From positions 124,001 to 188,000 of the forward strand of contig NZ_JADMKU010000004.1 of NCBI RefSeq assembly GCF_018219815.1: DNA of 64,000 nt, written 5' to 3'. Source of the stretch: Thalassovita aquimarina (GTDB taxonomy: Bacteria; Pseudomonadota; Alphaproteobacteria; Rhodobacterales; Rhodobacteraceae). The notes under the pieces were generated by a model. The model ran no database searches and was not told the origin of the DNA. It saw only the letters and a program-made list of their open reading frames with translations. Positions 47,675 through 52,170 of the stretch are shown piece by piece; positions within the stretch are counted from its first letter, which is position 1, and each line of letters begins with the position of its first letter. Made by a program: the position numbers and the translations under genes.

Positions 47675-47722
47675 GATGTGAAAAGGGCGGCCCGTTGGCC
47701 CAGCCCTTTACCATAAGTGTTG
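47675..47722 (+). repeat. Left inverted repeat of the accessory island
   Basis: Contains ATGTGA, then AAAGGGCGGCCCGTTGG, CCCAGCCCTTTACCA and a GTGTT at the end. It aligns imperfectly (about three quarters identical over 48 bases) in inverted orientation with 50480-50526. It is also a self-complementary hairpin by itself. Confidence 0.6.
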
Positions 47723-47806
47723 CAAATAAAAACTTCGGTTGGCCAGTTTCTGGCCAATATGCTCTCACAATAATAAGAAAAACTCGGAACAACCGGGAGA
47801 ATAAGT

Positions 47807-49537
47807 GTGGGAAAAGCCACGAAGAGAACTTCGTCAGGGCCTCGTAGGCGTTTGCCTTTGCCTTCCTTTGCGGTCGACATCAATTTCTGCCGGAATCCCC
47901 AATGTGATTTCTTCGCAGAAGCTCCGGACCCATATGACAGAAGAGGTCAAAACCGGAACAAGGTCAAGCCGAACATGCCGCGCGGCCGGGTCATTGGATC
48001 CGGCGAAGAAAAGACCTTCCAATGCGGCGGCTGCGGGAAAACCTCAATCATCAAGAACAATAAAGCGATCGTCGAAGAATATCGCCGCCTTCGGCGCAGA
48101 TTCCGTCCGGAGTTTCCTCGGGACGCCTGCTCCAATGAGGAGTGTCCCAACCATGGGAGGCCACAGTCCGAGTATCCGGATCTCTATCGGAGATCGGGAA
48201 CGACAAAAAAGGGCACACAGCGCTGGAAGTGCAAATCCTGCCTGAAGACATTCTCCACTGGAACACGCCTGGGCCGCCAAAAGCGGAGCCACACGAACCG
48301 CGAGGTTTTGTGGATGATCACCAATGGCGTTCCGATCACCAAAATCTGCGATTTCACAGAGCTTTCTCCGCGAGACGTATATCGCAAAATCGACTTCATC
48401 CACGACCGCGTCATCGACTTCACAGCAAGGCGAGAGGCTGATTTCAAGCGCGTGCAATGGGAGAAAGTCGGCCGCCGTTTCGCTTCGGATTCTCAAACGC
48501 TTCATTTGAACTGGCCGAACAAGCGGACCAGGGCGCAAATCGCCGTTCAGCATCTCTGCACCGCGCATGCCAACTCTGGCTACATCATGGCAGCCCATCT
48601 GCAACTGGACCCAGCCGTCGAACTGCCGGACATCGAGGCGAGAATGGTTGCCGCAGGGGACTTCAGCCTACCGAGAGCGTTTCGGGATCAGGCTCGCCTG
48701 TGGTCTGAAACCGAGTTCAAAGGCTACCTCGACAAAATGACCTACAATGTGGCCATTCACCCCGATGAGGCCCCAGAGGTCGATTTGGGGCTGCAGTTGC
48801 CTCACAGCGGCGCCCTGGTGCGCCAGGACGTTATGCAGATGGCACACGCATTCCAGGTGCGGCAGTTCCTCGGTAAAGGCTCGGAGCGCTTCGTGTTCGT
48901 CCTCGACGCGGATCCGGGACTGGCCATGTCCTTCATCTCGGCTTTCGCCGGATGGATCCGGAAAGAGAGGGCTGATGTCATCGTTGTCGAGTTCGACAAG
49001 AAAAAGTCCAACGATCAGAGAAACATGCTGATGAACGAAGGGCGCAAGCAGCTGGAAGATGACAGCAATGTGCCCCGCCGTATCTTCGATGATTTCCACC
49101 CTGGGACCAAAGATGAGATCAAGGACATTCTGGTGGAGAGCATGCTCGAAGACATGCCCTTAACTGCACCTTTCGAGTGGCCATACCACACGAAGTCCGA
49201 ACCGCATCGGTGCATGCGGATACTGACCGACCGAGAGAGCATGGCCCCTGACCGCCGCGCGCGCCTCATGCGCTTGGCAACATTGCGAAGCGTGGATACG
49301 TATTTCCACAAAATCCGAAGCAATCTGCGGCTGGCTGAGCGCCCCTCACATACACCAAGCGCCAACGGCCGCGCTTGGCACCGGCACTACCTCTACAACC
49401 CCGATACTATGGTTAAGATTGTCGATATCTATCGCTTCACCCACAATTGGATGGGCGGTGGCTCCACAAAGGAAACCCCAGCGATGGGGTTGGGATTGGC
49501 CAGGGGAAAGGTCGATGCGAAGGATCTGTTTTCATGA
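47807..49537 (+). CDS. Transposase-like protein with tandem zinc ribbons, HTH and DDE-like core
   Basis: A 576-residue protein of a family I do not recognise with certainty. Two zinc ribbons appear in tandem: C28-x4-C33 with C73-x2-C76, and C108-x4-C113 with C142-x2-C145; the second ends WKCKSCLKTFSTGT, like InsA/IS1595-type N termini. A helix-turn-helix follows (REVLWMITNGVPITKICDFT). Then an RNase-H-like part: D228 in FASDSQTLHLNW and D367/D369 in FVLDADPGL, fitting a DDE-type active site with the third acid not located. Start GTG 47807 has GGGAGAA upstream. Much longer than typical IS1/IS1595 transposases (about 230-320). Confidence 0.6.
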   Translation: MGKATKRTSSGPRRRLPLPSFAVDINFCRNPQCDFFAEAPDPYDRRGQNRNKVKPNMPRGRVIGSGEEKTFQCGGCGKTSIIKNNKAIVEEYRRLRRRFRPEFPRDACSNEECPNHGRPQSEYPDLYRRSGTTKKGTQRWKCKSCLKTFSTGTRLGRQKRSHTNREVLWMITNGVPITKICDFTELSPRDVYRKIDFIHDRVIDFTARREADFKRVQWEKVGRRFASDSQTLHLNWPNKRTRAQIAVQHLCTAHANSGYIMAAHLQLDPAVELPDIEARMVAAGDFSLPRAFRDQARLWSETEFKGYLDKMTYNVAIHPDEAPEVDLGLQLPHSGALVRQDVMQMAHAFQVRQFLGKGSERFVFVLDADPGLAMSFISAFAGWIRKERADVIVVEFDKKKSNDQRNMLMNEGRKQLEDDSNVPRRIFDDFHPGTKDEIKDILVESMLEDMPLTAPFEWPYHTKSEPHRCMRILTDRESMAPDRRARLMRLATLRSVDTYFHKIRSNLRLAERPSHTPSANGRAWHRHYLYNPDTMVKIVDIYRFTHNWMGGGSTKETPAMGLGLARGKVDAKDLFS

Positions 49538-49547
49538 AACGCAGATC

Positions 49548-50360
49548 TTAGGATGTCACCACCTCACCCTCGCCAAAATGCAGCCCATCGACCGATTTGA
49601 AGAAGCGAAGGGCAGCTGCGACGCTTTCGAAAATATAGCGAGCCTCAGCCTCCGCTAAAAGAACATTGTCGTGAGCTAACGAGCGGTCATTCCTCACCCC
49701 ATTAAACCGCTCGAAAATCTTGATGTTGGACCTCAACATATTCAGGATCATCTCTGTCAGTTCAACATCCTGTGCAAGCAGCTTGATGTATTTCCCGGCG
49801 CGAGAGTGGAGGGGATCATCCCGCAAATAATCACCGCCCCTTGATTGCAAAAGGTAAGCAAACCTTTTCATGCAATATAGGTGCAGTCGGTCAAGCCCGG
49901 CGGCATGGCGGCCGGCATCAAGATCCCGGCGGATACCATCGACCAATTCACTAAGCGTTTCACACTTCTCGTAGGTCTCGAATGCGTCTGTGGCGGCTGC
50001 ACTGTCATCCCCCTCGAGCTTCTGAATGAACTCAAACAGACGCCGTTCGACCCGTTTCTCTTCCTCAGGGTCTCCTTTTGCACACTCTGATTCCTCGACT
50101 CGGTATTTCCAAAGCGCTCGCAGTACCCGACCAACCAATGCCGGAGGCTCGATCAGGATGAACTCACGCAACCTCTTTGCCTTAGATCCACCAATCCTGC
50201 GGTATTTCTCCTGCTCCAGATCGAGACCAAGTTCAATTTCGAACCACTCAGCCATGGTGGCATCACTGAAATCGAGGACATATCCCCCATGCATGTCGAA
50301 GGCATCGTCAAGCTTACGGATATCGACCTTTGTAAGCCGTTTGCCGGGATGTGGTGTCAT
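49548..50360 (-). CDS. Abortive-infection-like protein: AbiJ-type N-terminal domain + HEPN RNase domain
   Basis: A 270-residue cytoplasmic protein. The N-terminal 90 residues (GYVLDFSDATMAEWFEIELG ... GGSKAKRLREFI ... LVGRVLRALWKY) resemble the AbiJ-NTD3 type domain. The C-terminal helical domain ends in FNGVRNDRSLAHDN, an R223-x6-H230 match to the catalytic HEPN Rx4-6H motif with the usual Asn after Arg. Such proteins act as RNA-cleaving phage-defence effectors that shut down infected cells. It is convergent to the transposase-like gene and 10 bases away. Family call is by memory of motifs, not by search. Confidence 0.7.
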   Translation of the reverse strand: MTPHPGKRLTKVDIRKLDDAFDMHGGYVLDFSDATMAEWFEIELGLDLEQEKYRRIGGSKAKRLREFILIEPPALVGRVLRALWKYRVEESECAKGDPEEEKRVERRLFEFIQKLEGDDSAAATDAFETYEKCETLSELVDGIRRDLDAGRHAAGLDRLHLYCMKRFAYLLQSRGGDYLRDDPLHSRAGKYIKLLAQDVELTEMILNMLRSNIKIFERFNGVRNDRSLAHDNVLLAEAEARYIFESVAAALRFFKSVDGLHFGEGEVVTS

Positions 50361-50442
50361 TATTTTATCAAGCCTGTCAGTTCGTTATGGCACTAATATT
50401 GGCCGGTTTGCCCGCAAAGGAAGCGCTAATCCGTGATTTCTC

Positions 50443-50476
50443 AAAGAAAAAGAGCGCCTGGTAGCAGGCGCTCTTT
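50443..50476 (-). terminator. Strong terminator at the etfQO/island border
   Basis: On the minus strand AAAGAGCGCCTG pairs perfectly over 12 bases with CAGGCGCTCTTT (50449-50460 with 50465-50476), loop CTAC, followed by TTTTTCTTT. It ends etfQO transcripts before the island. Confidence 0.92.
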
Positions 50477-50479
50477 GGT

Positions 50480-50526
50480 GAAACACATTTGGTAAAGGGC
50501 TGGCCCGTTGGCCGCCCTTCTTGTCA
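50480..50526 (-). repeat. Right inverted repeat / etfQO 3' hairpin
   Basis: On the minus strand it reads ATGTGA (last codons of etfQO), CAAG, AAGGGCGGCC-AACGGGC and CAGCCCTTTACCA. It is a hairpin just after the etfQO stop and the inverted partner of 47675-47722. Confidence 0.6.
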
Positions 50527-52170
50527 CATATTCGGATAATTCGGCCCGTCACCGCCCTGCGGCGTGCACCAGTTGATGTTCTGGGCCGGATCCTTGATGT
50601 CGCAGGTCTTGCAGTGGACGCAGTTCTGGAAGTTGACCACGAACTCCTTCGTGCCGTCCTTTTCCACCACCTCGTAGACGCCGGCCGGGCAGTAGCGCTG
50701 CGCCGGTTCGTCATACATCGGCAGGTTATTGGAAATCGGCACCGTCGGGTCCTTCAGCTGCAGATGGCTGGGCTGGCTTTCCTCGTGGTTGGTGAACGAG
50801 AAGCTGACATTGGTCAGCCGGTCGAAGCTGAGCGTGCCATCCGGCTTCGGATAATCGATCGGCTTGTGCACCGAGGCCGGTTCGGTCGATGCCGCATCGG
50901 TCTTGCCATGCTTCAGCGTGCCGAACAGCGAGAAGCCAAGCGTGTTTGTCCACATGTCGAAGCCGCCCAGTGCCAGCGACGCGGTGAGGCCGAATTTCGA
51001 CCACAGCGGTTTCACGTTGCGGACCTTCTTCAGGTCCTTGCCGATCGCGCCCTTACGGACTTCTGCTTCGTAATCGTGCAGCTCGTCGCCCGAGCGGCCC
51101 GCCTTGATCGCCGCATGCGCGGCTTCGGCCGCGGCCTTGCCCGACAGCATGGCGTTGTGGTTGCCCTTGATCCGCGGCACGTTGACCATGCCGACCGAAC
51201 AGCCCAGCAGCGCCACGCCGGGCGCCACCATCTGCGGCATCGACTGGTACCCGCCTTCGGAAATCGCCCGCGCACCGTAGGCGACGCGCTTGCCGCCCTT
51301 CAGCAGCTCGGCCACCATCGGGTGATGCTTGAAGCGCTGGAATTCCATGTAGGGGAACAGGTGCGGGTTCTTGTAGTTCAGGTGCACCACGAAACCGACA
51401 TAGACCTGGTTATTGTCCAGGTGATAGATGAACGATCCGCCGCCTGCATTGCTGCCCAGCGGCCAGCCCATGGTGTGGGTCACCGTGCCTTCGCGGTGCT
51501 TGGCCGGGTCGATTTCCCAGATTTCCTTCATGCCGAGGCCGAATTTCTGCGGCTCCTTGCCGTCGGACAGGCCGTAGCGTTCGATCACCTGCTTGGACAG
51601 GCTTCCGCGCACGCCTTCGGACAGGAACACGTATTTGCCGTGCAGTTCCATCCCTGGCTCATAGCCCGGTCCGGGGGTGCCGTCGGGGTTCTTGCCGAAT
51701 TCGCCGGCAACCACGCCCTTGATCGTGCCCTTGTCGCCATAGACCAGTTCGGAACAGGCCATGCCGGGGAAAATCTCCACCCCCAGCTCCTCGGCCTGCT
51801 CGGCCATCCAGCGGCAGACATTGGCCATCGACACGATGTAGTTGCCGTGGTTGTTCATCAAGGGCGGCATCGGCCAATTCGGCACCCGAACCTCGCCGGC
51901 TTCACCCAGCATGTAGAAATTGTCTTCCTTCACCGGGACGTTCAGCGGCGCGCCCTTTTCCTTCCAGTCGGGGATCAGCGCGTCGAGTCCGCAAGGATCC
52001 AGCACCGCGCCGGACAGGATATGCGCCCCCACTTCCGAGCCTTTTTCCAGCACGACAACATCCAGATCGGCATCCAGCTGCTTCAGGCGGATCGCGGCTG
52101 ACAGGCCGGCCGGCCCCGCACCCACGATCACTACGTCATATTCCATCGCTTCCCGTTCGATTTCCGACAT
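50524..52170 (-). CDS. Electron transfer flavoprotein-ubiquinone oxidoreductase
   Basis: A 548-residue membrane-associated flavoprotein that passes electrons from ETF (fed by acyl-CoA dehydrogenases) to ubiquinone. FAD binding: YDVVIVGAGPAGLSAAIRL near the N terminus. The C-terminal [4Fe-4S] ferredoxin domain is seen as RYCPAGVYE and QNCVHCKTCDIKDPAQNINW. Full-length. It can serve the acyl-CoA dehydrogenase encoded at 58444-60138. Confidence 0.95.
   Translation of the reverse strand: MSEIEREAMEYDVVIVGAGPAGLSAAIRLKQLDADLDVVVLEKGSEVGAHILSGAVLDPCGLDALIPDWKEKGAPLNVPVKEDNFYMLGEAGEVRVPNWPMPPLMNNHGNYIVSMANVCRWMAEQAEELGVEIFPGMACSELVYGDKGTIKGVVAGEFGKNPDGTPGPGYEPGMELHGKYVFLSEGVRGSLSKQVIERYGLSDGKEPQKFGLGMKEIWEIDPAKHREGTVTHTMGWPLGSNAGGGSFIYHLDNNQVYVGFVVHLNYKNPHLFPYMEFQRFKHHPMVAELLKGGKRVAYGARAISEGGYQSMPQMVAPGVALLGCSVGMVNVPRIKGNHNAMLSGKAAAEAAHAAIKAGRSGDELHDYEAEVRKGAIGKDLKKVRNVKPLWSKFGLTASLALGGFDMWTNTLGFSLFGTLKHGKTDAASTEPASVHKPIDYPKPDGTLSFDRLTNVSFSFTNHEESQPSHLQLKDPTVPISNNLPMYDEPAQRYCPAGVYEVVEKDGTKEFVVNFQNCVHCKTCDIKDPAQNINWCTPQGGDGPNYPNM

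What the first reader, a model, noticed from the sequence alone, without database searches (positions are those of the whole stretch)
47675..50526. Transposon-like island with a zinc-ribbon DDE protein and a HEPN defence gene
Two convergent genes of different base composition are bounded by imperfect inverted repeats of about 48 bases, with an inner 9-base pair bracketing just the genes. The transposase-like protein has two tandem zinc ribbons and is far longer than InsA-type transposases. This may be a mobile element that carries its own phage-defence passenger.
Basis: partly seen in the sequence, partly recalled or inferred. Interest (0 to 1): 0.8.

Follow-up and report, generated by a model that had tools for sequence, protein, structure and literature searches.

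The report
Defence-gene transposon that splits transcription terminators
A jumping DNA element, carrying a likely anti-virus gene, has inserted into the tip of a hairpin 'stop' signal after a bacterial gene, and most of its relatives in other bacteria did the same with other swappable genes on board.

Summary
The island is a transposon of 2,804 bp (47,700-50,503) with 25-bp terminal inverted repeats and a 9-bp target duplication. The 576-aa protein has two zinc ribbons, an HTH region and a predicted RNase-H fold with invariant D228/D367/D497 (26 of 26). It matches no curated transposase family over its length. The 270-aa gene is an Abi_C/HEPN protein.

Relatives share an unusual habit. Of 37 TIR-bracketed elements, 33 have a direct repeat of at least 9 bp. 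At 23 of these 33 reconstructed sites the insertion falls at the apex of a hairpin better than 99% of random positions; 8 do not reach 95%. Six of eight further elements, one from Bacillota, repeat it. A same-genus genome has the uninterrupted terminator.

The stretch between transposase stop codon and right TIR is exchangeable: elements 84-91% identical in DNA carry Abi_C, AbiD or a toxin-antitoxin pair; others carry restriction systems; many carry nothing. I read this as an apparently unnamed DDE transposon family that inserts into terminator hairpins and often carries defence cargo. Movement and phage defence are untested.

The parts
47681..47690 (.). left arm of the interrupted intrinsic-terminator hairpin (AAAAGGGCGG), target DNA
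   Evidence: Reconstructed empty site folds as AAGGGCGGCC-(CGTT)-GGCCGCCCTT; a congener has an uninterrupted terminator here
47691..47699 (.). target-site duplication, left copy (CCCGTTGGC)
   Evidence: boundaries ambiguous by up to 3 bases, the shared run being 12 bp
47700..47724 (+). left terminal inverted repeat, 25 bp (CCAGCCCTTTACCATAAGTGTTGCA)
   Evidence: perfect copy in L076 and L100 and L055
47739..47757 (.). palindrome inside the left end (TTGGCCAG-TTT-CTGGCCAA); possible operator or 5' UTR hairpin of the transposase gene
   Evidence: left-end hairpin in 20 of 33 elements against 54 of 1,980 control windows
47807..49537 (+). transposase gene, 576 aa: two zinc ribbons (C28/C33/C73/C76; C108/C113/C142/C145), HTH about 161-209, RNase-H-like core with D228, D367, D497
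49548..50360 (-). cargo: abortive-infection family protein, 270 aa, Abi_C with HEPN-type RN-x5-H motif (R223-N224...H230)
   Evidence: Pfam PF14355 E=2e-7; motif invariant in 5 of 5 aligned
50449..50476 (-). internal terminator-like hairpin next to the right end (stem 12 bp, T-run on the minus strand); it lies upstream of the cargo gene and would stop transcription entering from the neighbouring gene
   Evidence: the role is inferred
50479..50503 (-). right terminal inverted repeat, 25 bp, 3 mismatches to the left over the 24 bases compared
50504..50512 (.). target-site duplication, right copy (CCCGTTGGC)
50513..50523 (.). right arm of the interrupted terminator (CGCCCTTCTTG), just past the stop codon of the gene at 50,524-52,170 (minus), by my recall an electron-transfer-flavoprotein:ubiquinone oxidoreductase
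   Evidence: gene name recalled, not searched

Best explanation
This is one copy of a DDE transposon family whose transposase, directly or through a partner, selects the apex of intrinsic-terminator hairpins and inserts there with a duplication of about 9 bp. The element is modular: left TIR + transposase is a fixed block, and the stretch between the transposase stop codon and the right TIR is a cargo slot that is empty or filled with exchangeable genes, often defence or toxin-antitoxin genes; here an Abi_C/HEPN protein. Shown by sequence: TIRs, duplications, terminator-apex position at most sites, cargo exchange with sharp boundaries, predicted fold and conserved acidic residues. Inferred: that the 576-aa protein is the active recombinase, that D228/D367/D497 is the catalytic triad, that the hairpin (as DNA cruciform, as dyad symmetry, or as a paused RNA polymerase) is what is recognised, and that the cargo acts against phages.
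Against: Eight of 33 sites do not pass the 95th percentile of random positions (L066, L067, L069, L071, L075, L080, L084, L085); some of these show terminator-like arms, but L067 and L085 show none, and L051 and L143 are poor as well. The stem search was limited to hairpins centred within 4 nt of the insertion, so the close centring is in part built in. Three elements (L082, L097, L144) have matching arms but no duplication, L097 only marginally. Foldseek matches are weak (two at E <= 0.001). No copy has been seen to move; only one copy in this genome. The Abi gene is widespread without this transposase. 12 of 34 bracketed loci have no cargo, and only 9 of about 28 cargo-bearing elements have a recognised defence or TA family; I did not measure a background rate.
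Confidence: 0.85

Rival explanations
1. The target is chosen by DNA sequence, not by a hairpin: the transposase binds a dyad such as AAAAGGC-N-GCCTTTT, which terminators happen to supply, perhaps because it resembles the element's own ends (AAAGGGCTGG ... CCAGCCCTTT).
For: Target arms have a base-composition pattern at fixed distance. TIRs and outward arms are somewhat alike: 5.97 identities of 12 against 4.80 for shuffled TIRs in elements whose TIR has a T-run, 5.38 against 4.73 in the others; elements with the T-run also have the higher median stem score, 29.0 against 21.5. One locus has two ends facing each other over 9 bp, a terminator-like junction (L102).
Against: Only 9 of 66 arm/TIR comparisons reach p<=0.05, 1 of 29 in elements without the T-run, yet these also sit at hairpins (median 21.5, above the 99th percentile of 21.0). 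Stem lengths vary widely.
Confidence: 0.3
2. The transposase is guided by the transcription machinery: it meets RNA polymerase or a termination factor paused at the terminator, as proposed for promoter-targeting TnGBS elements.
For: [quoted passage not shown]
Against: The hairpin centre is within 1.5 nt of the centre of the duplication at 30 of 33 sites (search limited to 4 nt), which fits symmetric DNA better than a polymerase stopped beyond the stem.
Confidence: 0.2
3. Chance: terminators are common in intergenic DNA and insertions in genes are selected against, so surviving insertions fall near terminators.
For: The insertions examined would be under such selection.
Against: Local control: mean stem score falls from 26.3 to about 10 within 6 nt of the insertion point, and the rest of the same +-180 nt gives a median of 9.5.
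Confidence: 0.03
4. The two genes are a defence pair (the zinc-ribbon protein being a sensor or effector), not a transposon with cargo.
For: Convergent pair within one low-GC block.
Against: The two were not found together elsewhere; the first gene alone with TIRs is found as solo elements of about 1.9-2.0 kb; cargo differs in its closest relatives.
Confidence: 0.02

Closest known systems
IS1 / IS1595 families (zinc-ribbon DDE insertion sequences)
   Same: The second of the two zinc ribbons resembles the IS1/IS1595 ribbon (NF033558 E=3.1e-7, NF050000 E=3e-6); duplications of similar size (recalled: IS1 about 9 bp, IS1595 8 bp).
   Different: 30.5 bits against a cut-off of 100 for IS1, matching residues 128-200 only; the protein is 576 aa with a second ribbon and, in the model, a helical stretch before the last catalytic helix.
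IS256 / prokaryotic Mutator-like (p-MULT) families, including ISKra4 and TnGBS
   Different: Those described there go upstream of promoters or look random; the words terminator, hairpin and palindrom have no occurrence in that text. Models of the IS256 type match only the zinc/HTH region here.
REP-targeting insertion sequences (IS1397, IS621, ISKpn1, ISRm22: PMC1525189, passages; ISPpu9: listing)
   Same: Insertion into a palindromic target.
   Different: Those hit a repetitive palindrome family of their genome; here the targets of different elements are different terminators.
Group IIC introns and Tn7 (recalled, not from a call)
   Same: Also use terminators: group IIC introns insert beside terminator stems, Tn7 inserts in the glmS terminator.
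   Different: Retroelement, or site fixed by the glmS coding sequence; neither is centred on the apex of many different hairpins.
Abi_C / abortive infection family proteins (HEPN)
   Same: Pfam Abi_C match and RN-x5-H motif; relatives on 401 plasmid records (43 with at least 80% covered), 15 of the 20 listed named abortive infection family protein.
   Different: Nothing unusual except its carrier.

Membership tests
IS1 family | full-length match to the IS1 transposase model above its cut-off | tested here: not met
   30.5 bits against 100, residues 128-200 only
IS1/IS1595 zinc ribbon | zinc-binding domain model NF050000 at its cut-off | tested here: inconclusive
   27.7 bits against 28 for this protein; 8 of 9 members of A1 match at E<=0.1, best 9.5e-7
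IS256 / Mutator-like (p-MULT) | match to an IS256-type transposase model above its cut-off | tested here: not met
   IS256_Zn_var 11.5 bits against 150, residues 132-199; the 4-Cys domain model 26.2 against 27. Whether NCBIfam holds models for every p-MULT family was not checked
IS256 / Mutator-like (p-MULT) | RNase-H core with a helical insertion before the last catalytic residue | tested here: inconclusive
DDE transposon with TIRs | TIRs plus target duplication of fixed length | tested here: met
   33 of 37 with a direct repeat of at least 9 bp; exact length is ambiguous, 9 in the window's clade, and 8 or 10 depending on where the TIR is taken to start in others
DDE transposon with TIRs | three invariant acidic catalytic residues | tested here: met
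   D228, D367, D497 in 26 of 26 aligned members; D268 and E465 are invariant as well, so the triad is inferred from the model
DDE transposon with TIRs | observed transposition | not testable with these tools
   needs an experiment
Abi_C / HEPN | Pfam Abi_C above gathering score and HEPN R-x4-6-H motif | tested here: met
   31.5 bits against 24; R223 and H230 invariant in 5 of 5
Abi_C / HEPN | phage resistance or RNase activity | not testable with these tools
   no assay; PADLOC gives no match for this protein

The most novel reading that the evidence does not exclude
A widespread, unnamed transposon family treats intrinsic transcription terminators as universal attachment sites, reading hairpin geometry instead of sequence and joining at the loop, and serves as a shuttle with a single interchangeable cargo slot that moves defence and toxin-antitoxin modules between safe, gene-flanking sites.
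Probability: 0.55. Interest if true: 0.87.

Novelty: new variant of a known kind. Interest (0 to 1): 0.76.

Why it matters
Most insertion sequences either insert nearly at random or recognise a fixed sequence. A transposase that finds a structural signal present after very many genes would be a safe-harbour strategy: it avoids breaking genes. It makes testable how a DDE enzyme can recognise a hairpin or a terminating polymerase. The single cargo slot with sharp borders shows how defence genes are exchanged between carriers, and gives a simple handle (TIR pair plus terminator halves) to find uncharacterised defence and toxin genes, for example the recurrent unknown cargo in L063, L065, L066 and L121.

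Tried and rejected
Repeats as ordinary flanking terminators or REP-like repeats: rejected, since the TIR part is shared with relatives and occurs only twice in the genome.

TIRs built to restore a terminator on each side: the hybrid hairpins of the window fold (z -2.1 and -1.7), but over 33 elements only 12 of 66 junctions beat the 95th percentile of shuffled TIRs; a weak effect at most.

Target chosen for likeness to the TIR: weak, see rivals.

Phage link: no relatives in phages or viral contigs. Conserved pair with the Abi gene: not found. L053, L072, L074, L077, L087, L109, L149: no TIR pair recognised. Six of ten literature searches were aimed at terminator- or hairpin-targeting elements, four at defence passengers, group IIC introns, IS1595 and REP targets; two of the ten returned nothing. 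No listed title or abstract start describes insertion sequences that target terminators. The library lacks most subscription papers, and ISfinder could not be searched, so the family may be named there.

Rows left out before counts: from the 53 loci I examined 40; 13 (L079, L083, L090, L096, L098, L100-L107) were fragments or lay at contig ends. Of the 40, six were not entered as bracketed: L056 (left end off the contig), L063, L072, L074, L077, L087. L063 has a plausible TIR pair in a terminator with, by eye, an 8-of-9 duplication. L056 and L100 are one element over two contigs of one genome and were scored separately. L066 lies beside another element's end, so its repeat is ambiguous; it was kept in the 33. 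L076 has a rearranged transposase and was kept in the 33. In one search, 9 of the 15 displayed loci were shown from the wrong end; only L032, L035, L036, L038, L042 and L046 show the homologous side, and of these L036 and L046 show no clear terminator. One search stopped on an error after printing most rows; searches replaced it. The first automatic choice of duplication length (exactly 9 bp) found 18 of 37; the free-length search found 33 of 37, and the latter is used.
Full report
What is there. One search gives two convergent genes, 47,807-49,537 (+; 576 aa, GTG start) and 49,548-50,360 (-; 270 aa), with GC of 56.3% and 52.0% against 63.6% and 60.6% in the 5-kb flanks. From outside inwards on the left: a terminator arm AAAAGGGCGG, a 9-bp copy of CCCGTTGGC, and the TIR CCAGCCCTTTACCATAAGTGTTGCA; the right side mirrors it and ends with the arm CGCCCTTCTT. 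Leaving out the element and one 9-bp copy gives GAAAAGGGCGGCCCGTTGGCCGCCCTTCTT, a terminator behind the gene at 50,524-52,170 (minus strand). Of 15 relatives' loci displayed, 6 show the homologous side (the other 9 were printed from the wrong end): the same-genus locus L038 has AACAGGGCGGCCAAATGGTCGCCCTTTTTCTTT, the same-genus L032 and L035 have other unbroken hairpins with T-runs, L042 a hairpin, L036 and L046 nothing clear. The shared run at the ends is 12 bp, so the duplication boundary is ambiguous; 9 bp goes with matching TIR starts.

Relatives. In the same family 26 of 394 genomes have a match, this one included and many of them fragments; in the class 13 of 385, this one included; 21 plasmid records; none in phages or viral contigs. 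One copy in this genome. Genome contigs gave 53 loci, from Rhodobacteraceae to Azospirillum, Desulfobacterota and gammaproteobacteria; a plasmid relative comes from the Bacillota.

Insertion sites. I searched 40 of the 53 loci for inverted repeats bracketing the gene and took 34 as bracketed. With the window and two loci (L005, L008) that makes 37 elements. A perfect direct repeat of at least 9 bp lies at the ends in 33 of 37; the misses are L060 (flank masked), L082, L097 and L089 (contig end). Putting the flanks together with one copy, I scored the best stem whose centre lies within 4 nt of the insertion. 25, 23 and 10 of 33 exceed the 95th, 99th and 99.9th percentile of 13,000 random flank positions scored the same way. 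In a local control each site was compared with its own neighbourhood: 24 of 33 are in the top 5% of +-180 nt, and the mean score drops from 26.3 to 9.9 at 6 nt. The aligned sites show A-runs before and T-runs after the stem (75% A at -13, 84% T at +13), as bidirectional terminators do. The left arm fits its own right arm better than those of other sites: 8.79 of 14 against 7.83 +- 0.22, 0 of 2,000 shuffles. That shows the sites are real hairpins; it does not show that the enzyme reads the hairpin, because anything that selects terminators would give it. Eight sites fail the 95th percentile (L066, L067, L069, L071, L075, L080, L084, L085), some of them with visible terminator arms, two (L067, L085) with none.

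Sites scored after this rule was formed: L052, L054, L110 and L121 give 27.5-34, L051 gives 9; L100/L056, one element split over two contigs, gives 25.5 with a 9-bp duplication; L144 gives 28.5-34 without a duplication; L143 gives 8. So 6 of 8. L053, L109 and L149 had no TIR pair. L063, found later, lies by eye in a terminator with 8 of 9 duplicated bases.

The arms belong to the target. The window, L055 and L100/L056 are 84-96% alike in DNA inside the element; homology starts at the TIR or within two bases of it, and the flanking arms differ.

Cargo. The window and L055 are 83.5% identical from the left TIR to the transposase stop codon (49,538) and then share nothing detectable until the right TIR; L055 and L056 are 91% identical up to the stop and then share only 29 nt at the right TIR. 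Their cargo is Abi_C, AbiD (Abi_2 E=1.3e-50, PADLOC AbiD 2.2e-67) and a Gp49-like protein with an HTH_37 protein, the layout of a toxin-antitoxin pair. Others carry an Eco57I-type methylase with a BsuBI/PstI endonuclease (L084), an Mrr endonuclease (L091), an EcoRI-type methylase with a GmrSD/HNH restriction enzyme (L092), a Phd antitoxin with an unnamed partner (L073), a PIN_3 protein (L099), and again Gp49/HTH_37 (L110). By my tally 28 elements have more than 250 bp between transposase and right TIR: 22 of the 37 (leaving aside L008 and L076 as unclear), plus L056/L100, L063, L110, L121, L054 and L144. Nine of these 28 have a recognised defence or TA family (the window, L055, L056, L073, L084, L091, L092, L099, L110). 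The rest carry acetyltransferases (L057, L071), a LysR regulator (L071), DUF6338 (L061), a Glyoxalase_8 match (L065) or nothing recognised; cargo of L082 and L144, and some small ORFs of others, were not scanned. I did not measure the background rate of such genes. Twelve of the 34 bracketed loci are solo elements, and L005, L051, L052 and L143 look solo by length.

The Abi gene here. Pfam Abi_C E=2e-7, no PADLOC match, RN-x5-H motif invariant in 5 of 5. Relatives: 13 of 394 family genomes, this one included, and 401 plasmid records. Defence by RNA cleavage and abortive infection is established knowledge for HEPN families (recalled) and unproven here. The hairpin at 50,449-50,476 has its T-run on the minus strand and lies upstream of this gene, so it probably keeps out transcription from the neighbouring gene.

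How it most likely works. The zinc ribbons and HTH bind the TIRs (inference from position and from IS1-type proteins); the RNase-H core cuts and joins; the target is opened at the centre of a terminator dyad, and staggered joining duplicates about 9 bp. The sites are shown; the reader of the site (cruciform, dyad or polymerase) is not. Insertion there spares genes. Whether the hybrid hairpins at both ends still terminate is open: the window's fold moderately well, but over the family the effect is weak.

Prior work. Prokaryotic Mutator-like elements insert upstream of sigma-A promoters; the word terminator has no occurrence in that text (PMC3942029, passages). REP palindromes are targets of several insertion sequences (PMC1525189, passages). 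Group IIC introns and Tn7 at terminators are recalled, not from a call. Ten searches of the open library listed no title or abstract start on insertion sequences that target terminators; subscription papers and ISfinder were out of reach. Hence new variant of a known kind, with a real chance that the family already has a name.

Noticed in passing
L147:6001-7467 (Salinivibrio kushneri), also L145, L146, L148: Vibrionaceae relatives (about 24-25% identical) have no clear TIRs. In L147 the gene is a 488-aa protein annotated lactate dehydrogenase between deoD and hdfR; by eye it keeps the zinc ribbons but lacks the second and third catalytic Asp: possibly a domesticated transposase.
   Followed up: partly
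L063:5279-5869, L065:8923-9471, L066:7729-8256, L121:878-1435: A recurrent cargo protein of about 175-196 aa with no Pfam match, 24-28% identical to the first; a candidate new toxin or defence family.
   Followed up: partly
L082, L097, L144 element ends: Arms of the terminator match each other but the apex sequences on the two sides differ, so there is no target duplication; unexplained.
   Followed up: partly
L066, left flank of the element at about 5855: The element sits directly beside the TIR of another element of the family, at a spot where a terminator half and a TIR may form a new hairpin (weak, score 16); only one transposase match is left in the locus.
   Followed up: partly
L102:2244-2302: Two TIRs face each other over 9 bp, like a tandem or circle junction; it forms a terminator-like hairpin itself.
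   Followed up: partly
window 47739-47757: Palindrome TTGGCCAG-TTT-CTGGCCAA between left TIR and transposase start, similar in several relatives; possible autoregulatory site.
   Followed up: partly
window 50449-50476: A second, internal terminator-like hairpin next to the right TIR; L055, L057, L059, L062 have hairpins of different sequence near the same spot (13 of 33 right ends have one).
   Followed up: partly
L144 (Acidovorax temperans plasmid pEP1), 5812-11899: Large element of about 6 kb whose TIRs enclose, besides the transposase, two annotated genes, one a four-helix bundle copper-binding protein; cargo not scanned.
   Followed up: no
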